From positions 186,001-250,000 of the forward strand of contig NZ_QORW01000003.1 of assembly GCF_003574735.1 (NCBI RefSeq): a DNA stretch of 64,000 nt, read 5' to 3'. The DNA comes from Dongia deserti. GTDB taxonomy: Bacteria > Pseudomonadota > Alphaproteobacteria > Dongiales > Dongiaceae. Numbering within the stretch: position 1 is the stretch's first letter; every line of letters starts with the position of its first letter. A program made the translations under genes and the position numbers. The notes beneath the pieces were generated by a model. The model did not search any database. It had not been told where the DNA came from and was given only the letters and a program-made list of their open reading frames with translations. Positions 22,050 to 30,331 of the stretch are shown here, one piece after another.

Positions 22050-24311
22050 CTAGCCCCGCCCATTTGTTCGGTCCGGGAGGCTGCCGGCGATGAACACCGA
22101 TGCCCCTGCTTCGCCGAGGCCGACTTGCCTCACACGGCCGACGATTGTTGCATATCCATGGCCGGCGGACTGCAGTTCGGCGGCGCAATCGGCCGCCGCT
22201 GCGGCAGGGACACCGGCGAGCAAGCCGCCGGAGGTTTGCGGGTCGAACAGGACCGCCTTGGCCGGCGCATCGATGTGGCTGCGCAGCAGCTGAAGGCGCG
22301 CCAGGTTCTCCGGAAGAAGGGTCGATGCCATCCCCTCCCGGGCCTTGGCGAGGACGTCGGCGTAGATCGGCATGGCGGTGAGGTCGAGTTCCGCTTCTGC
22401 ACCGCTGGCGACCAGCATTTCCCCCAGATGCCCGATCAGGCCGAAGCCGCTTACATCCGTCATAGCGGTCGCGCGGTACCTCGAGAGGATCGCGGCTACA
22501 CTGCGATTGGACCGGCGCATCTCCTCCAGTGCGGCAGCGACCGAAACCGCACGCGCCCGCCCGCGCATGGCGGCCGCGAACAGGATGCCCGTGCCGAGCG
22601 GTCGCGTCAGGAGCAGCGCATCGCCCGCCGCCAATCCGCCCTTGCGCACGATGCTGTCTGCCGCAACTTCGCCCGTGACACTCAGCCCCAGCGACAGATC
22701 CATTCCTTCACTTGAATGACCGCCGACCAGCGCGACGCCTTCGCGGTCGAGACATGCGCGTGCACCGGACAGCAGCTGGAACAAATGCTCTTCGACCTTG
22801 TCCGTAGGGCCGACAGGAATGACCGCCGTAGCCAGTGCGTGGCGCGGCACACCGCCCATTGCGAACACGTCATTCAGCGCATGATTGGCCGCGATCTCTC
22901 CGAACACGAAGGGGTCGTCGATGAAGGCACGGAAGAAGTCGACGGTCTGCACTAGGTATCCGGATCTCGGCGGCAGTAGGATAGCCGCATCGTCAGGCGC
23001 ATCCAGCCCGATCATCACACCATCGACCATCGGCGGCGGCAGCTTGGCGATGGCGCGCGACAAAGGCAACGGACCGATCTTCGCCGCGCAGCCGCCGCAG
23101 CGCATCTCCTCTTCCCGAGCGCTGTCCAGCTGCACCTTGGGCATGCGTCCGAGCATGGCATCGGTGTCCTGATACATCCGCATCCAGCGGCGATCGATCC
23201 AATCCTTCCACCGCCAGACCCAGGCACCTTCGGTCTTGAAAGGTCCGCGCGACGCGACCGCGTAGCGTTCTCCAGTCGAGATCAGCGCGAGATGCCGCTG
23301 CTGTGGTCGCCACGGTCTTGGCGCCTGGCCGCGCGCACGCCGGCGCAGATTCCGGGCAAGGGGCGGACCGGCGCGCACGGCATAGACGCCTGCCTTCTCC
23401 CGCGGCGTCTCGGTCAGGGTCACGCAATCGCCGGCGCCGAACACATCCGGATCGTTGAGCGCTTGAAGCGTGGGGCCAACGGCCAGAAATCCATCCTTGT
23501 CCAGCGCCAGGCCAGTCCCGCGGAACCAGCCCGGCGCCGCGGCTCCGGTCGTCACCAGCACCGCGTCCGCCGCAACGCTCTGACCTCCTTCCAATTCGAT
23601 CTCGGACGGCATCACCGCGCCGGCCAGGCTATGCTCATGCAGTTCGATACCACGCGCGGCGAGCGCTCGCCGGAAGCTGTCGCGCACCTTCGTGTCGTGG
23701 GTCGCCAGAATCTCGTCATCAGTCACCAGAACAAAGGAAAACGCCGCCTCATCCCGACCGTCCGCCCGCGCATCGGCCAGCAGGTGCGCGCGCATCGACA
23801 GGATGAGTTCGACGCCACCGGCGCCGCCGCCGATCACTGCGATGCGCCGCGGGCCATCGGGCGCGCGGCAACGCTCCCGCAAGGAAGCGAACTTGGCGAG
23901 GAAAGACCCGATCGGCTTGACCGCGATGCCGTATTCCGCCGCGCCGTCAATGTGCGCCAGTGCCGGCGTGATACCGACGTCGATGGAGAGCAGGTCATAG
24001 GCGATGGGCGGTCGCCCTGCGAGATGCACGCGTTTCTGCGCGCGGTCGACCCCGATCGCTTCCGCATGGATCAGCCGCGTGCCCGTGATTGCTGTCAAAC
24101 GCAGCAGGTCGATATGCGCTTCCGGCTCGGCATAGAGGCCGGCAATCACACCGGGCAACATGCCCGAGTAGGGCGTCTCGAGGTCACGCGTAACCAGGGT
24201 CAGGCGCACGCCCGGCGCTGGCTTCATCGCAAACGCCTTGAGAACATGCACATGAGCATGTCCCCCGCCTAGCAGGACGATGTCGATGCGCACCTCTCCC
24301 GCGCGCATCAT
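22050..24311 (-). CDS. selD: Fusion of FAD-dependent NADH dehydrogenase-like domain with selenide, water dikinase (SelD)
   Basis: SelD makes selenophosphate from selenide and ATP, the selenium donor for SelA. The 753 residues are twice the usual SelD length. Residues 1-370 are a pyridine nucleotide-disulfide oxidoreductase of the NDH-2 type, with an N-terminal glycine-rich dinucleotide site (IVLLGGGHAHVHVLK) and a second one (RIAVIGGGAGGVELILSMRA). From about residue 400, SelD begins with MRCGGCAAKIG, which keeps the catalytic Cys and Lys; cysteine, not selenocysteine, is encoded. ALNDVFAMGG, LVGGHSSEGMDLSLG and the C-terminal FDPQTSGGLLAG complete it. Such fusions are known in several bacteria and some algae. 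The oxidoreductase half may supply reduced selenium, but that is inference. ATG 24311 is the first of two adjacent ATGs. Confidence 0.93.
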   Translation of the reverse strand: MMRAGEVRIDIVLLGGGHAHVHVLKAFAMKPAPGVRLTLVTRDLETPYSGMLPGVIAGLYAEPEAHIDLLRLTAITGTRLIHAEAIGVDRAQKRVHLAGRPPIAYDLLSIDVGITPALAHIDGAAEYGIAVKPIGSFLAKFASLRERCRAPDGPRRIAVIGGGAGGVELILSMRAHLLADARADGRDEAAFSFVLVTDDEILATHDTKVRDSFRRALAARGIELHEHSLAGAVMPSEIELEGGQSVAADAVLVTTGAAAPGWFRGTGLALDKDGFLAVGPTLQALNDPDVFGAGDCVTLTETPREKAGVYAVRAGPPLARNLRRRARGQAPRPWRPQQRHLALISTGERYAVASRGPFKTEGAWVWRWKDWIDRRWMRMYQDTDAMLGRMPKVQLDSAREEEMRCGGCAAKIGPLPLSRAIAKLPPPMVDGVMIGLDAPDDAAILLPPRSGYLVQTVDFFRAFIDDPFVFGEIAANHALNDVFAMGGVPRHALATAVIPVGPTDKVEEHLFQLLSGARACLDREGVALVGGHSSEGMDLSLGLSVTGEVAADSIVRKGGLAAGDALLLTRPLGTGILFAAAMRGRARAVSVAAALEEMRRSNRSVAAILSRYRATAMTDVSGFGLIGHLGEMLVASGAEAELDLTAMPIYADVLAKAREGMASTLLPENLARLQLLRSHIDAPAKAVLFDPQTSGGLLAGVPAAAAADCAAELQSAGHGYATIVGRVRQVGLGEAGASVFIAGSLPDRTNGRG

Positions 24312-24330: not shown

Positions 24331-24726
24331 TCATTGCGCGGCGACCTCCTCGATCATTATGCGCCGCCCCTGCCGGTCGAAGAAGAAGCCCTCGTTCAGA
24401 GTCAAGCGCTCGGCCTTCACTCGCGATTCGATCTCACTCAGCCTGGCACGTGCCGCGGCGTTATCGAGCGGCCCGCCTTCCGGCGCGATCGCGGGGAAGA
24501 AGGATGCGCCATCCCAATGGACTCCGGCGTCCGCGAACAGCGCCATGATTTCCAGCCACTCGACCTCCGCGCCGATCACGTTGAGATAGGTCGAGGCAAG
24601 CGGAGTCACGGATCGGTCGCCGATTTCCACCAACACCACCAGCGCGGTGAAGGCGCCGCGATCGGCGAATTCGGCAACGATCCAGTCGTTGAAGTCGAGC
24701 ACGTCGCCGGTCTCAGAAATCGACAA
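24331..24726 (-). CDS. Unrecognised 131-residue protein of the selenocysteine locus
   Basis: I do not recognise a family. The frame opens well before this point, but the upstream part is the antiparallel reading of the preceding gene. I place the start at TTG 24726, with GGAG seven bases upstream, giving MSISETGDVLDFNDWIVAEF. A GTG 18 bases downstream is the alternative. The protein is acidic and cysteine-free, with a likely mixed alpha/beta core (FTALVVLVEIGDRSV), the segment VGIDAEVEWLE-like region around residues 50-60 ending in WLEIMALFADAGVHW, and a basic C-terminus. The start overlaps the end of the upstream unknown gene by 14 bases, and the selD fusion follows after 19 bases. It is therefore embedded in the Sec operon; a role in selenium or formate dehydrogenase metabolism is a guess from position alone. 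Confidence 0.6.
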   Translation of the reverse strand: MSISETGDVLDFNDWIVAEFADRGAFTALVVLVEIGDRSVTPLASTYLNVIGAEVEWLEIMALFADAGVHWDGASFFPAIAPEGGPLDNAAARARLSEIESRVKAERLTLNEGFFFDRQGRRIMIEEVAAQ

Positions 24727-25168
24727 GGGGAGTCTCCGGCATGGGCTGATCGAACAGGTCCCAGAATGGCTTGCGATGCGTCGCTTCGTACCAGGCTTCG
24801 AACGCGCCCAGCGAGGCGAGGATGTCGACCGGCGGCGCGTCCGGCTGCGGATGCAGATTCCTAAACAGTCCCCGAACCACGGGTGCAAACTGAGTCAAGA
24901 TGGCGGAGCGGGCTTCGCTGTCGCTCGACCAGCCGAGCTTGGCGCGCAGAACCGCCTGACTGCCGGCGACTGCCATCTCCTCGCTCTCCGCGCGCGCCAC
25001 CGCATCGGCGATCGGCCGCATCAGGTTCGCGCGGCGGAAGGCAAAGCTGCGCTCCCGCTCGAGGGCTTTGATGCGCTCGGCAGCTTCCCGGCGGTACGCC
25101 ATTTCCGCGGCCGCAGCGCTCTTGGCTGCGGCCTCGAGCGTCTCGAGGAACGGCGCAATCGGGCTCAT
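24713..25168 (-). CDS. Unrecognised 151-residue protein following selB
   Basis: I do not recognise a family. The ATG (MSPIAPFLETLEAAAKSAAA) overlaps the selB stop as ATGA, which decides the start; the longer open frame upstream runs antisense-like through the tRNA-Sec gene in another frame and has no support. The first 70 residues are rich in Ala, Glu and Arg without prolines after residue 6, and look like a long helix or coiled coil. The second half (FAPVVRGLFRNLHPQPDAPP, then FEAWYEATHRKPFW) is more globular and aromatic. No cysteines, signal peptide or membrane segment are seen. Its translation would be coupled to a selB frame that passes through selC, which is the main reason to think that the selB tail is really translated. 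Confidence 0.6.
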   Translation of the reverse strand: MSPIAPFLETLEAAAKSAAAAEMAYRREAAERIKALERERSFAFRRANLMRPIADAVARAESEEMAVAGSQAVLRAKLGWSSDSEARSAILTQFAPVVRGLFRNLHPQPDAPPVDILASLGAFEAWYEATHRKPFWDLFDQPMPETPLVDF

Positions 25169-27249
25169 CGGCGCGCGCCCTGCGAAACTGGTGAATGGGA
25201 AATTGGCGGAAGAGAGTGGGAGTCGAACCCACCAAGGATCGTCTCGCGACCCTTCCCGGATTTGAAGTCCGGACGCCCCACCGGGGACGCATCTCCTCCA
25301 ATTGGAGCCTGCGCCGGCTCGGCGCGCTTGGCGAACATGTCTGTGCGATTGGGATTGATGCGCCGCCAATCGCCACGCCGCATCGTGAAACCTTGGCGGT
25401 CGAAATATTCGAGGATCTGGATCGCCACTTTGCGGCCGTTCTCCAGGCGGTCCCGGAACTCCGCCGCATTGAATCGGCCGTCCTCGGTATTGCGCGCAAC
25501 ATCGATCGCGATCTCCGCCATCTCTGCGACGGTCTCCGCCAGGAAGAAGTGATCCAGCGCAACCTCGTCCACTTCACCGCGGCGGGCCACCAAGCGGAAG
25601 ATCCGGCGCACGATCTTCTCGTCGATCCCGAACTCACGCGCAATGTCGCGCACGCGCGGCGGGCGGAAGCGGTTGAACTCGCCCAGCAATGGCTTGGCAC
25701 GCGACCAGATCCGCTCCTCCTCCGGCGTCATGCGCACTTCGTGATGTGGCCGCCGCAGCCAGGCGCGGTCCAGAACCACGGCGCCGGCACTCACCATCCG
25801 CTGGATCGCCGCCGCGAACAATGGCGCGGGCAGACGCGGATGAAGAGATAGCCTCAGCTTCTCCTGCCCCATCCCTTGCAGATCTGGCCGTTCGGAATGA
25901 AACGCATCGAGCGTCGCGATGGCGGCATCGCTGAACCGCTGCCAGGTCGTGCGTCGCATGGCGATGGCCTGGTGACCGCCCGACAGCGCGACGAGATCAT
26001 GCCGCTCAATCGCCTCTCCGGCCGCGTTGGCGGAGGCCGCACGGTCTCGAAAGAAAGCTTCCAGATCGACAAAGCCCCTCGGCCCAGCCAGAGCGGCCGA
26101 GAGCGCCGCTGCGGGATCGGCAGTGTCGAGCGCCAACAGCTCTGCGCGGCGCTCCGACGTGCGTCGCTTGCGTTCCGGGGCACGCAAGTCGATCAGCACA
26201 CCGCCTCCGATGGTGCGGGTGGCGGAGGTATCGCGGATGACGAACCGGTCGCCCGCCGCCGCGGCGATCGGCTTTTCGAGAACGATCTGCACCAGCTCGG
26301 TTTCACCCGGTGCGATGGGCTCATCCCGCAGGACCACGACGCGCGCCGCCACGTCCGTCGCGCCGTGATGAAATCGCACCGGCATCCATTGGCCAACGGG
26401 CTTGAGTTCGGACTTCAGCACCCGCAGCTGCGTGTCGATGCGACCGGTCGGTGCATGCAGGGATGGATCGAGCACGATATCGCCGCGTCCGATCGCTTCC
26501 TTGGTGATGCCCGCGCCCGCCAGCGCCAACGCACAGCGCTCGCCGACTTGCCCGTGCTCCGCCGCGCGGTTCTGCACATGCAGAGAGCGCACGCGCGCTT
26601 CCAGCCCTGATGGGCTCACGATCACGGCATCACCGACGGTCACATGGCCGGACAGGACCGTGCCCGTGACGACCGTCCCTGTGCCGATCAAGGTGAAGGA
26701 ACGATCGACGGCAAGACGGAAGCGCCCGTCAGCCGCCCGTGTCACAGTCGCGCGGCACAGATCATCCAACCGCTCTGCCAGTGCGCCGATGCCCTCTCCC
26801 GTCATGGAGGAGACGGGCAGGATTTCGGCACCAGCCAGGCACGTTCCGGTCAAGGCTGCCAAGATTTCCGCTCCGACTTCGCGTCGGCGCGCTTCGTCCG
26901 CGAGGTCTGCCTTGGTCAGTGCGACGATCCCGCGCGTGAGGCCCAGCAGGTCCAGGATGGCGAGGTGCTCGCGCGTCTGCGGCATGATGCCATCGTCGGC
27001 TGCCACCACCAGCAGTACGAGATCGATGCCGGTCGCGCCGGCCAGCATGTTGTGCACCAGCTTCTCATGGCCCGGCACGTCGATAAAGCCGATGACCTGC
27101 CCGTCCGGGCGCGCCCAATAGGCGAAGCCAAGATCGAGGGTGATGCCGCGCGCCTTCTCCTCCGGCAGACGGTCGGCATCGACGCCAGTCAAGGCCCGCA
27201 CCAAAGCGGTCTTGCCATGATCGATATGACCGGCGGTTCCGACGATCAT
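25165..27249 (-). CDS. selB: Selenocysteine-specific elongation factor SelB, reading frame running through the tRNA-Sec gene
   Basis: SelB is the GTPase that carries Sec-tRNA to UGA codons followed by a SECIS hairpin. Residues 2-14 (IVGTAGHIDHGKT) are the G1 loop, DVPGHEKLV is G3 and TKADL is G4. EF-Tu-like domains II and III follow, then winged-helix repeats that bind the SECIS (for example RPPRVRDIAREFGIDEKIV and GRKVAIQILEYFDRQGFTM). The ATG overlaps the Sel1-repeat gene stop (ATGA); 73 further upstream codons are open but lie inside that gene. The usual C-terminus is reached near residue 630 (NRTDMF). The frame then stays open for about 65 codons, 32 of which are exactly the tRNA-Sec gene, and stops on the next gene's ATG. 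Confidence 0.93.
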   Translation of the reverse strand: MIVGTAGHIDHGKTALVRALTGVDADRLPEEKARGITLDLGFAYWARPDGQVIGFIDVPGHEKLVHNMLAGATGIDLVLLVVAADDGIMPQTREHLAILDLLGLTRGIVALTKADLADEARRREVGAEILAALTGTCLAGAEILPVSSMTGEGIGALAERLDDLCRATVTRAADGRFRLAVDRSFTLIGTGTVVTGTVLSGHVTVGDAVIVSPSGLEARVRSLHVQNRAAEHGQVGERCALALAGAGITKEAIGRGDIVLDPSLHAPTGRIDTQLRVLKSELKPVGQWMPVRFHHGATDVAARVVVLRDEPIAPGETELVQIVLEKPIAAAAGDRFVIRDTSATRTIGGGVLIDLRAPERKRRTSERRAELLALDTADPAAALSAALAGPRGFVDLEAFFRDRAASANAAGEAIERHDLVALSGGHQAIAMRRTTWQRFSDAAIATLDAFHSERPDLQGMGQEKLRLSLHPRLPAPLFAAAIQRMVSAGAVVLDRAWLRRPHHEVRMTPEEERIWSRAKPLLGEFNRFRPPRVRDIAREFGIDEKIVRRIFRLVARRGEVDEVALDHFFLAETVAEMAEIAIDVARNTEDGRFNAAEFRDRLENGRKVAIQILEYFDRQGFTMRRGDWRRINPNRTDMFAKRAEPAQAPIGGDASPVGRPDFKSGKGRETILGGFDSHSLPPISHSPVSQGARR
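25204..25299 (-). tRNA. selC: Selenocysteine tRNA (anticodon TCA), nested in the 3' end of selB
   Basis: A 96-base element with every hallmark of bacterial tRNA-Sec. The 8-bp acceptor stem begins GGAGGAGA and pairs fully (one G-U) with TCTCTTCC. A discriminator G and encoded CCA follow. The anticodon stem CCGGA/TCCGG closes the loop CTTCAAA, with TCA at 25263-25265. A long variable arm has a 6-bp stem (GGGTCG/CGATCC), and the T arm is GTGGG-TTCGACT-CCCAC. The length and GCCA end match E. coli selC (95 bases). It starts on a codon boundary of the selB frame and occupies exactly 32 codons of it, on the same strand, so release needs RNase P/RNase processing of the selB message or a separate internal promoter. 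Confidence 0.97.
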
Positions 27250-28007
27250 GTGGCACTCCGCTCGGCTTCCAACCGCTGTGCGGGCGTGCAGGCGGCGTGC
27301 GCCGCGGACAGGAACGGCCCTGCAAGCTTGCTGCCGCGGCGCTGCGCCCGCAGCAGCCACGTGAGCGCCGCCACCGAATCCCGTTTGATACCAGCACCCA
27401 TGTGATGTGCTGCGCCCAGCATCGCTTGCCCATCGGCATCGCCGAGCACAGCTGCCTTTTGCCACCACTGCGCAGCAGCCGCGGGATCGCGCGTGACGCC
27501 CAGCGCATTGTGATAGAGCATGCCGAGCCGGGTCATCGCAGATGCCACGCCCTGCTCCGCTGCCGCCATCGCCCAGCGCCGCGCCTCTTCGTAGTCCGGC
27601 GGCAGCAGTTCGCCTTCGACCAGTAGCCAGGACAGCATGTCCTGGGATTCCGCATCGCCCTGTTCGGAGGCCGCGCGATACCAGCGCGCGGCTGCGGCCG
27701 CGTCCAGCTCGACCAACTCTCCTTTGAAGTAGAGCGTGGCGAGATTGCGCTGGCCGACGACATCGCCGGCCTCCGCCGCCAGGGTCAGCCAGCGCATGGC
27801 CAGCGTGCCATCGGGCGCGACCCCAAGGCCGTTGGCAAAGCAGGCGCCGATATTGCTCTGCGCGCGCGCGATGCCGGCATGGGCCAGCGGCCCCCAGATC
27901 TCCAGCGCTCGCGCGTGGTCGCCATGTTCCGCCGCTTCGTAGGCCATGGTCATCTGGTCGGTAACGCTATCGAGCGCACGCTCTACCCCGGAGTCAGGCG
28001 CTTGCAT
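27246..28007 (-). CDS. Sel1-repeat (TPR-like) protein between selA and selB
   Basis: The 253 residues consist almost entirely of Sel1-like helical repeats of about 36 residues. Successive units are marked by G-x-A-x-A-Q-x-x-x-G and AA-x-W-Y/W motifs (ARAQSNIGACFANGLGV, QRNLATLYFKGE, ESQDMLSWLLVEGEL, AMTRLGMLYHNALGV, GQAMLGAAHHMGAGI). Such solenoids bind other proteins. No signal peptide is seen, so a cytoplasmic adaptor role is likely, but the partner is unknown. The ATG is preceded by GGAGGGATGGG and overlaps selA by 14 bases, while its stop overlaps the selB start (ATGA). This firm placement between two core Sec genes suggests a function in Sec synthesis or formate dehydrogenase maturation, which remains inference. 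Confidence 0.85.
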   Translation of the reverse strand: MQAPDSGVERALDSVTDQMTMAYEAAEHGDHARALEIWGPLAHAGIARAQSNIGACFANGLGVAPDGTLAMRWLTLAAEAGDVVGQRNLATLYFKGELVELDAAAAARWYRAASEQGDAESQDMLSWLLVEGELLPPDYEEARRWAMAAAEQGVASAMTRLGMLYHNALGVTRDPAAAAQWWQKAAVLGDADGQAMLGAAHHMGAGIKRDSVAALTWLLRAQRRGSKLAGPFLSAAHAACTPAQRLEAERSAT

Positions 28008-29412
28008 CCCATCCCTCCGACAAATCGAGCGCGTTGAGATTGGCGGCAAACCCAGCCTCATCCTCCAGGCAGCGCAGATCAAGCATCAGACAATTGTCGG
28101 CGATCCGGCCGATGACGGGAACCGGCAAGTCGCGCAGCGCCGCCCCCAATGCCGCGAGCGCGCGGCCCTGCCCGCGCGACGCCGATGGACGGATGGCGAT
28201 GCCGGCACTGGGCACGATCTCCAATGGCAAGGCGCCAGAGCCGATCTGGCTGGCGCAAGCGACGCTTTCCACCTGATAGGCAGCGCCAAGCTTCGCGACC
28301 AGAAGCGGGGCGATGCGGCCGACCAACTCTTCGATCTCGACCTTTGGTCGCGCCAGCAGGCGGATGGTCGGCAGACGCGCGGCTAGGCGGTCAGGATCGC
28401 GGTGGAGCTTGAGCGTCGCTTCCAGCGCAGCCATGCGAATCTTATCCACGCGCAGGGCGCGCTTCATCGGGTTGCGGTTGATCTGCGCCAGCAGCTCCTT
28501 GCGGCCGACGATGAATCCGGCCTGCGGCCCGCCCAGCAGCTTGTCGCCGGAAAAGGTGACGAGGTCGGCACCCTCGGCAACGACTTCCGCCACCGTCGGT
28601 TCGTGTTTGAGTCCGAAGCGCGTGAGATCAATCAATGTGCCGGAGCCGAGATCGTTGACCAGCGGCAAGCCGTGCTCCCGTGCCAGTCCCGCAAGCTCGC
28701 GCGCGGAGACCTCGCTAGTGAAGCCTTCGATCCGGTAATTTGAGGTATGCACCTTCAGCAGCAGACCGGTCTTTGGTCCGATCGCCGCCTTGTAATCCTT
28801 GAAATGCGTACGGTTGGTAGTGCCGACTTCGACGAGCTTCGTGCCCGCACGGCTCATGATCTCCGGCATGCGGAAGGCGCCGCCAATCTCGATCAGCTCG
28901 CCGCGCGACACCACCGCCTCGCGCCCTTTCGCCAGCGTGTTGAGCGCCAGCAAAATAGCGGCCGCATTGTTGTTGACGATGGTCGCATCCTCGGCGCCTG
29001 CCAGCTCGCATAATAATCCGCGCAGATGATCGTCACGGTCGCCGCGCTTGCCGGCCTCAAGGTCGAACTCGAGTGCGACGGCGCTGCGCATGGCGTCCGT
29101 CGCCGCCTCGATCGCTGCGTTCGCCAGCAGCGCGCGGCCCAGATTGGTGTGCAGCACCGTGCCGGTCAGGTTGAAGACCGGGCGCAGGCTCGGCACAGCT
29201 TTGGCCTGCAGCAGCAGCCGCGCGTCTTCAGCCACGGCCTCCGCAGCAGCGCCGGTGCCAGCCTGGCGCGCGTCGGCTATCACATCGCGCACCGCAGCCA
29301 CGACCGCAGAGCGGCCGAACTCGCTGATCGCAGCATTAGCGATCCCGGTCCTCAGCACTTCGTCGACCGAGGGCAGGCGTCGTGCGCTGGCGATGTTGCC
29401 GTCCGAGCTCAC
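27994..29412 (-). CDS. selA: L-seryl-tRNA(Sec) selenium transferase SelA
   Basis: PLP enzyme that converts seryl-tRNA-Sec to selenocysteyl-tRNA-Sec using selenophosphate. At 472 residues it has the usual length. It begins with the N-terminal tRNA-binding region (ARRLPSVDEVLRTG), followed by FNLTGTVLHTNLGRALLA, VNNNAAAILLALNTLA, and the PLP-lysine segment TFSGDKLLGGPQAG near residue 287, where Lys should form the Schiff base. I chose GTG 29412, one base after the fdhE stop. An extension to 29508 is open but overlaps the fdhE end, and the family does not need it. It works with selB, selC and the SelD fusion of the same operon, so all four Sec functions are encoded within 8 kb. Confidence 0.96.
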   Translation of the reverse strand: MSSDGNIASARRLPSVDEVLRTGIANAAISEFGRSAVVAAVRDVIADARQAGTGAAAEAVAEDARLLLQAKAVPSLRPVFNLTGTVLHTNLGRALLANAAIEAATDAMRSAVALEFDLEAGKRGDRDDHLRGLLCELAGAEDATIVNNNAAAILLALNTLAKGREAVVSRGELIEIGGAFRMPEIMSRAGTKLVEVGTTNRTHFKDYKAAIGPKTGLLLKVHTSNYRIEGFTSEVSARELAGLAREHGLPLVNDLGSGTLIDLTRFGLKHEPTVAEVVAEGADLVTFSGDKLLGGPQAGFIVGRKELLAQINRNPMKRALRVDKIRMAALEATLKLHRDPDRLAARLPTIRLLARPKVEIEELVGRIAPLLVAKLGAAYQVESVACASQIGSGALPLEIVPSAGIAIRPSASRGQGRALAALGAALRDLPVPVIGRIADNCLMLDLRCLEDEAGFAANLNALDLSEGWDASA

Positions 29413-29413
29413 G

Positions 29414-30331
29414 TCAATACCCAACCAGGAACGGGTTTGCGCCGCCGCGCGTGAAGCCCGTCTCGCGCACCAGCAGATCCAGTCCGAGACTGGCGACGTC
29501 GTCGGCAATGGGATCGACCGCCGGGTCCTGGTGCTGGTGCAGGATCTTCACGTAGCCGTGGCAGCTTTTGCAGGTTTCGGCCTTGATCGTTCCCGCGCCG
29601 CCTTCGAGTTCCTCATAGGCAATGCCGGCCGTCGAGCCGCACAAGGCGCACTTGATACGGACATAGTTCCACAAGGTGCCGCACAGCGCACAGCCGCAAT
29701 AACGCGCGCCGTGCGCGCCCTGCCAGCCGACGACCATCGACGTCGCCGGCAGGCCGCCGCAGACCGGGCACGCCCCATCTCCGACCGGCACCAGCGACTT
29801 CGCGTCAAGCTGTGCGGCAAGCCGGGCGAACTGGACCTGCAGGGCAGCCGCAACGTAGAGATGATCCGCCAGCGTTTCCATCGGAATGGCATAGGCCAGC
29901 ACGGACCTGACCATCTCCGCGCGCGCCACGCCATCAGTGGAGCGCAGCCGTGCGAGCGCCTCCGCCGCCGCCTCGGGCATGTCGATGCCTATCACCTGAT
30001 CGAGAAGACGCTCGAGCGTCTGGTCAAGCACCTGGTCGGGTTCGAACCGCGCGCGATCCAGCGCCGGCATGCTGAACTCGCGCGCACGCTTGAGCGCGTC
30101 CGCCTTGGGCAGTGTGGGCGCCGGCAGCCCGCCCTGCACGACATGCTGAGCCTCGGCGATGCCGGCCAGAAACAGCAGATAGGGCTTGAGATCGTGGCCT
30201 TCCGCCAGATAGCGGAAGCGCGCGGCGCGGGTGCAGAAGAGCTGCAGCGGCTCCGGCAGGCGGACAAAGGCAGGACTGACAACCTCGCCGATCGAGGTCA
30301 TATCGCGCTGCGGCGCGTCCGTCTTTGCCAT
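29414..30331 (-). CDS. fdhE: Formate dehydrogenase accessory protein FdhE
   Basis: Cytoplasmic maturation factor for respiratory formate dehydrogenase, needed for activity of the exported enzyme. The 305 residues match the family. The C-terminal half carries the four CxxC pairs typical of FdhE rubredoxin-like iron sites: CPVCGG, the CALCGTLWNYVRIKCALCGS region, and CKSCHGYVK. The ATG has a good ribosome-binding site (GAGGTGAG, four bases upstream). It lies 48 bases after the gamma-subunit gene and one base before selA, which fits a single transcript combining the enzyme, its chaperone and the Sec apparatus. Confidence 0.96.
   Translation of the reverse strand: MAKTDAPQRDMTSIGEVVSPAFVRLPEPLQLFCTRAARFRYLAEGHDLKPYLLFLAGIAEAQHVVQGGLPAPTLPKADALKRAREFSMPALDRARFEPDQVLDQTLERLLDQVIGIDMPEAAAEALARLRSTDGVARAEMVRSVLAYAIPMETLADHLYVAAALQVQFARLAAQLDAKSLVPVGDGACPVCGGLPATSMVVGWQGAHGARYCGCALCGTLWNYVRIKCALCGSTAGIAYEELEGGAGTIKAETCKSCHGYVKILHQHQDPAVDPIADDVASLGLDLLVRETGFTRGGANPFLVGY

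What the first reader, a model, noticed from the sequence alone, without database searches (positions are those of the whole stretch)
25165..25299. tRNA-Sec gene lies wholly inside the selB reading frame
Seen directly: selC occupies exactly 32 codons of the selB frame on the same strand, starting on a codon boundary, with no selB stop before it. The selB frame then continues 12 codons and ends in an ATGA overlap with the next gene. If translated, SelB would carry a tail decoded from its own tRNA gene. The same transcript is both the selB message and the tRNA precursor, so processing of one destroys the 3' end of the other. That could be feedback: tRNA maturation would remove the stop codon from selB mRNA and uncouple the downstream gene.
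Basis: partly seen in the sequence, partly recalled or inferred. Interest (0 to 1): 0.8.

Follow-up and report, generated by a model that had tools for sequence, protein, structure and literature searches.

The report
Selenocysteine tRNA gene nested in selB
In this bacterium the gene for the selenocysteine tRNA sits entirely inside the coding frame of its own delivery factor, SelB, so one transcript may yield either the tRNA or the full-length protein; the arrangement and the feedback idea were published in 2021, and this locus is a further example.

Summary
selC (25299-25204, minus strand, 96 nt with encoded CCA) fills exactly 32 codons of selB; the frame runs 12 codons further to a TGA that overlaps the next ORF's start (ATGA). 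One selC and one full-length selB were found in this genome.

It is not new: Mukai 2021 (PMC8124441, read in full) describes selC nested in selB in Alphaproteobacteria, with the same overlap and the same feedback model.

Added here: the open frame is very unlikely to be accidental. In 74 of 74 nested loci the tRNA lies in phase 0 of selB, with 16 linker lengths, each a multiple of three, and at least 28 length changes on a SelB tree. The tRNA itself would be readable in frames 1 and 2 in 66 and 68 of 69. Non-nested loci show mixed phases. The linker is weakly constrained and the tail is predicted disordered. The frame is kept also in 26 loci with no start near the stop, so coupling to the next gene is not the whole reason.

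Feedback by tRNA processing stays untested. Verdict: real, conserved, already described kind; a new member.

The parts
25165..27249 (-). selB, ATG to TGA, 694 aa; residues 651-682 are read from selC
   Evidence: TIGR00475 450.6 bits against cut-off 242.25; start and overlap
25204..25299 (-). selC, tRNA-Sec, 96 nt with encoded CCA, phase 0 of selB
   Evidence: RF01852 76.1 bits; ARAGORN; letters
25300..25359 (-). linker between the last SelB winged helix and selC
   Evidence: Pfam SelB-wing_3 ends at residue 703 of the 767-aa ORF; comparable linkers vary in length by threes
25168..25203 (-). 12 codons of selB after selC
25165..25168 (-). ATGA: stop of selB overlapping start of ORF1
24713..25168 (-). 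ORF1, 151 aa, no Pfam or NCBIfam match
24331..24726 (-). ORF2, start uncertain (TTG 24726 assumed), no Pfam or NCBIfam match
22050..24311 (-). SelD fused behind a pyridine-nucleotide oxidoreductase domain
27246..28082 (-). Sel1-repeat ORF (start uncertain), ATGA overlap with selB
27994..29421 (-). selA (start uncertain)
   Evidence: Pfam SelA 537.7 bits
29414..30331 (-). fdhE
   Evidence: TIGR01562 283.9 bits
32043..35246 (-). formate dehydrogenase-N alpha subunit with one in-frame TGA (residue 241 of the ORF, 34526-34524)
   Evidence: TIGR01553 1412.1 bits

Best explanation
This is a member of the published arrangement in which selC is nested, in frame and on the same strand, inside the 3' end of selB within an fdh-sel cluster. 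The reading frame through the tRNA is really used: translation ends just beyond the tRNA and gives SelB a probably disordered tail, about 54 residues longer than the E. coli protein. Because tRNA and message share one stretch of RNA, each transcript that covers both can serve only one end: either ribosomes finish SelB, or the tRNA folds and is cut out, leaving a selB message without a stop codon. Shown here: geometry, single copy, conservation, frame preservation. Inferred: translation of the tail, co-transcription, cleavage of the shared transcript, mutual exclusion. Not shown: that the exclusion acts as regulatory feedback.
For: Geometry. One selC and one full-length selB found in the genome; the two next-best Rfam matches are tRNA-Ser. 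Nesting and ATGA kept in the other two family members with selC. 69 of 76 named loci with SelB upstream are nested. Phase 0 in 74 of 74 nested loci, 16 linker lengths, all multiples of three. At least 28 length changes on the SelB tree; one gain and four losses fit. Mixed phases in 21 non-nested loci. In frame 0 translation ends 1-28 codons past the tRNA in 74 of 74; frames 1 and 2 end within 30 codons in 39 and 24 of 74. The tRNA cloverleaf forms within the message in the predicted fold. Sec-containing formate dehydrogenase in the same cluster. Same arrangement and model in Mukai 2021.
Against: No transcript, processing or peptide data for this locus. Lineages that lost the nesting keep selB and selC, so it is dispensable. 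The linker is weakly constrained (dN/dS 0.69 against 0.17 in the winged-helix part) and the tail has no predicted fold. The fold of the region is not more stable than shuffles (z -0.57). Competition between translation and folding alone would not demand phase 0, since other frames are open too.
Confidence: 0.7

Rival explanations
1. Tail function: the phase-0 peptide encoded by selC is itself useful to SelB (for example in RNA or ribosome contact), so one stretch is selected both as tRNA and as protein.
For: Phase 0 is strict although frames 1 and 2 of the tRNA are open in 66 and 68 of 69 nested loci; kept in 26 loci with no start near the stop. Differences at second codon positions inside the tRNA are fewer in nested than in control tRNAs (0.21-0.22 against 0.28-0.29 for pairs of 80% identity or more; pairs not independent).
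Against: Tail predicted disordered, pLDDT under 50 for nearly all of it; linker residues nearly free; lineages without the tail exist.
Confidence: 0.2
2. Coupling only: the frame is kept so that ribosomes leaving selB start the next gene (ORF1 or ORF2); the tRNA merely lies in the way.
For: ATGA in the window and its two family members with selC; 33 of 74 nested loci have a stop-start overlap with an ORF of 100 aa or more. Of the other 41, 10 have such a start from 5 nt before to 14 nt after the stop, where re-initiation is possible.
Against: 26 loci have no such start from 40 nt before to 30 nt after the stop and still show 8 linker lengths, 11 changes, all in frame.
Confidence: 0.2
3. Inherited accident: the overlap arose once by loss of a stop codon and persists with no regulatory role; frame breaks are disfavoured only because altered tails harm SelB.
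For: Tree fits one gain; some lineages lost it without losing selB or selC.
Against: Losses are few against at least 28 in-frame length changes. A nonsense test was too weak to decide (4-5 expected).
Confidence: 0.25
4. Separate transcripts: selC has its own promoter inside selB, so selB mRNA and tRNA precursor are mostly different molecules and little exclusion occurs.
For: None found; promoters of other types could not be scanned.
Against: No sigma-70-like site at 25100-25700, but none was expected by chance either, so this is weak.
Confidence: 0.2

Closest known systems
selC nested inside selB in Alphaproteobacteria (Mukai 2021, PMC8124441)
   Same: Whole tRNA-Sec, 96 nt with CCA in most cases, inside selB on the same strand, first codon Gly (GGA) and last Pro (CCA); selB stop often overlaps the next ORF; cluster with selA, Sel1-like, SelD and fdo genes; same proposed exclusion between SelB and tRNA.
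   Different: I could not tell whether this genome was in that study. The phase count, length changes on a tree, dN/dS and disorder prediction given here do not appear in the paper's text (figures not held).
Partial selB-selC overlap in Dyella/Luteibacter and reversed overlap in Shewanella/Ferrimonas (same paper)
   Same: Overlap of the same two genes
   Different: There selB stops inside selC, or selC lies on the other strand
tRNA-Lys inside cox1 of Armadillidium mitochondria (as cited in PMC8124441; not read by me)
   Same: tRNA wholly inside a protein gene in direct orientation
   Different: Compact mitochondrial genome, unrelated genes

Membership tests
Nested selC-in-selB arrangement (Mukai 2021) | Complete tRNA-Sec on the same strand inside the selB ORF | tested here: met
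Nested selC-in-selB arrangement (Mukai 2021) | tRNA length a multiple of three, first codon Gly, last codon Pro (most cases) | tested here: met
   96 nt, GGA to CCA
Nested selC-in-selB arrangement (Mukai 2021) | selB stop overlaps the next ORF's start (many cases) | tested here: met
   ATGA at 25168-25165
Nested selC-in-selB arrangement (Mukai 2021) | fdo and sel gene cluster with Sel1-like, ORF1/ORF2 and SelD | tested here: met
   ORF1 and ORF2 equated with Mukai's by position and size only
Nested selC-in-selB arrangement (Mukai 2021) | Host is alphaproteobacterial (nested form) | tested here: inconclusive
Nested selC-in-selB arrangement (Mukai 2021) | tRNA processing cuts selB mRNA and lowers SelB (hypothesis of the paper) | not testable with these tools
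   needs RNA and protein data
tRNA-Sec (RF01852) | Score above the gathering cut-off, UCA anticodon | tested here: met
   76.1 against 47 bits; anticodon tca
SelB (TIGR00475) | Score above the curated cut-off | tested here: met
   450.6 against 242.25 bits

The most novel reading that the evidence does not exclude
The phase-0 peptide encoded by the tRNA gene is itself under selection: SelB carries a working tail translated from the gene of the tRNA it delivers, so one 96-base stretch is selected at once as tRNA and as protein, independent of coupling to the next gene.
Probability: 0.2. Interest if true: 0.7.

Novelty: new member of a known kind. Interest (0 to 1): 0.4.

Why it matters
A tRNA gene inside a protein frame forces one RNA to be either message or tRNA, a simple way to balance SelB against its tRNA without a regulator. 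The idea has been in print since 2021; the searches (open-licence PubMed Central only) listed no experiment on it. The frame-preservation counts here say that the reading frame is selected, and not only for coupling to the next gene, which makes a direct experiment worthwhile.

Tried and rejected
Single-genome openness as evidence: rejected, since the tRNA is open in all three frames. Linker lengths measured from BLAST ends were replaced by anchored lengths, because BLAST ends vary by whole codons. Nonsense-mutation test: 4-5 events expected in pairs chosen because they are nested, so uninformative. Protein-level constraint inside the tRNA: a small deficit of second-position differences, pairs not independent. 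Pfam at E up to 1 for ORF1, ORF2 and the tail: nothing. The order-level search returned the same 17 genomes as the family.

Limits of the counts. 22 of 48 loci and 4 of 80 had no SelB detected upstream and were not classed (two of the four begin at contig ends). In one search L046 was skipped, and L070 and L072 have doubtful tRNA ends. Three of 81 anchor residues are not G. The tree is a quick one with 30 open forks of 90 inner branches; L120 and L135 are poorly filled. The 17 unnamed rows in the tree are a choice: 17 of the 26 loci with SelB upstream. The dN/dS pairs were compared without gaps, with linkers bounded by BLAST ends.

Full report
Observation. On the minus strand selC occupies 25299-25204: the Rfam tRNA-Sec model covers 25299-25208 at 76.1 bits, and G plus CCA follow. 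SelB reads through it in phase 0 for 32 codons, then 12 codons, then TGA at 25167-25165 inside an ATGA that starts the next ORF. SelB most likely starts at ATG 27249, itself in an ATGA overlap with a Sel1-repeat ORF. The genome has one full-length SelB match; the other five matches are at 72 bits or less against 1553.6. It has one match to a tRNA-Sec pattern. The Rfam search gave 8 matches in this genome, two over the cut-off: 76.1 bits here and 47.1 bits elsewhere. The second, and the next one at 46.9 bits, are tRNA-Ser by ARAGORN.

Setting. The cluster holds fdhE, selA, a Sel1-like gene, selB with selC, ORF1, ORF2 and a SelD fused behind an oxidoreductase domain. A formate dehydrogenase-N alpha subunit with a single in-frame TGA at residue 241 lies upstream, so the Sec system has an evident client. 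The PDB chain closest to SelB (5lzb, 614 residues; that it is the E. coli protein is recalled) aligns over window SelB residues 1-627 to its residues 1-601. The window protein therefore runs about 54 residues past that length, and residues 651-682 are read from selC.

Prior work. A search found Mukai 2021 (PMC8124441), which I read in full text (figures not held). It reports selC nested in selB in diverse Alphaproteobacteria, the 96-nt length, the stop-start overlap with ORF1 or ORF2, lineages that lost it, and a model in which tRNA processing leaves a nonstop selB mRNA. Two later reviews repeat this (passages of PMC13188914 and PMC9312934). A third citing paper was seen only in a listing. The searches listed no experiment on it; they cover open-licence PubMed Central papers only.

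Conservation. Of 17 genomes in the family, 3 have a pattern match to selC, and these three are nested with ATGA. In a class-wide draw 46 of 385 genomes match. Among 48 loci (these 46 plus two family members) SelB was detected upstream in 26: 5 nested, 1 with the stop inside selC, 20 with the stop before it; 22 were not classed. A scan of named genomes with the tRNA-coded peptide kept the best 80 of 396 confirmed loci. SelB lies upstream in 76 of 80: 69 nested, 6 with the stop before, 1 with the stop inside. A quick SelB tree of 93 rows needs 5 changes between nested and not, which fits one gain and four losses (L037; L038 with L039; L122; L134). In that tree the window's SelB groups with Bosea and that of its family member G006 with Rhodoplanes, which suggests transfer of the cluster between lineages.

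Is the frame selected? In 74 nested loci (69 named, 5 unnamed) the distance from a fixed residue of the last winged helix to selC takes 16 values, all multiples of three. The tree needs at least 28 length changes. The tRNA has no stop in frames 1 and 2 in 66 and 68 of 69 nested loci, so frameshifted nested forms could exist, but none was seen. Of 6 loci with the stop before selC in the same set, 5 are out of phase; in 21 non-nested loci of the other set the phases 0, 1, 2 occur 7, 5 and 9 times. If a third of length changes were in frame by chance, 28 or more of 32 would have probability 3e-10; the cautious counts, 15 of 19 or of 20, give 6e-5 and 1.7e-4. These treat changes as independent and take the losses as frame breaks. 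In frame 0 translation ends 1 to 28 codons after the tRNA in 74 of 74; in frames 1 and 2 it ends within 30 codons, or inside the tRNA, in 39 and 24 of 74.

What is selected? Hardly the linker sequence: pooled dN/dS over 21 pairs is 0.69, against 0.17 for the winged-helix part. Not an evident folded domain: AlphaFold2, on a 32-row alignment, gives pLDDT under 50 for nearly all of the tail. Not overlap with the next gene alone: 33 of 74 overlap the start of an ORF of 100 aa or more and 41 do not. Of the 41, 10 have such a start from 5 nt before to 14 nt after the stop, 5 have one 26-35 nt before it, and 26 have none from 40 nt before to 30 nt after it. These 26 still show 8 linker lengths and 11 changes, all in frame. 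What stays common is that ribosomes cross the tRNA in phase 0 and stop soon after it. That agrees with competition between translation and tRNA folding, but strict phase is not explained by competition alone, since other frames are open; a role of the tail peptide stays possible.

Mechanism. Most likely each transcript that covers both is used either as selB message or as tRNA precursor. Folding of the 201-nt region gives the tRNA cloverleaf within the message, though the total energy is not unusual against shuffles (z -0.57). Cleavage at the tRNA 5' end would leave selB without a stop. Whether this sets the ratio of SelB to tRNA is untested.

Verdict. Real, conserved, and a new member of an arrangement already in print; the added value is evidence that the frame is maintained by selection.

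Noticed in passing
22050-24311: SelD is fused behind an oxidoreductase domain; the fusion model TIGR04369 ('fusion_not_SelD') scores 476.6 against a cut-off of 700, the SelD model TIGR00476 273 against 125.
   Followed up: no
24331-25168: ORF1 and ORF2 downstream of selB have no Pfam or NCBIfam match, although ORFs that look alike follow nested selB in many loci.
   Followed up: partly
L111: A record titled Mycobacterium sp. KBS0706 carries a selB-selC locus that groups with Inquilinus limosus; the title may be wrong.
   Followed up: no
25160-25360: In the minimum-energy fold the linker before selC pairs with the region just before and around the ORF1 start, so a folded tRNA might hide that start; conservation not checked.
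   Followed up: no
L134:4001-4096: In an Acetobacteraceae genome selB ends at a TAG inside selC, a natural case of partial loss.
   Followed up: no
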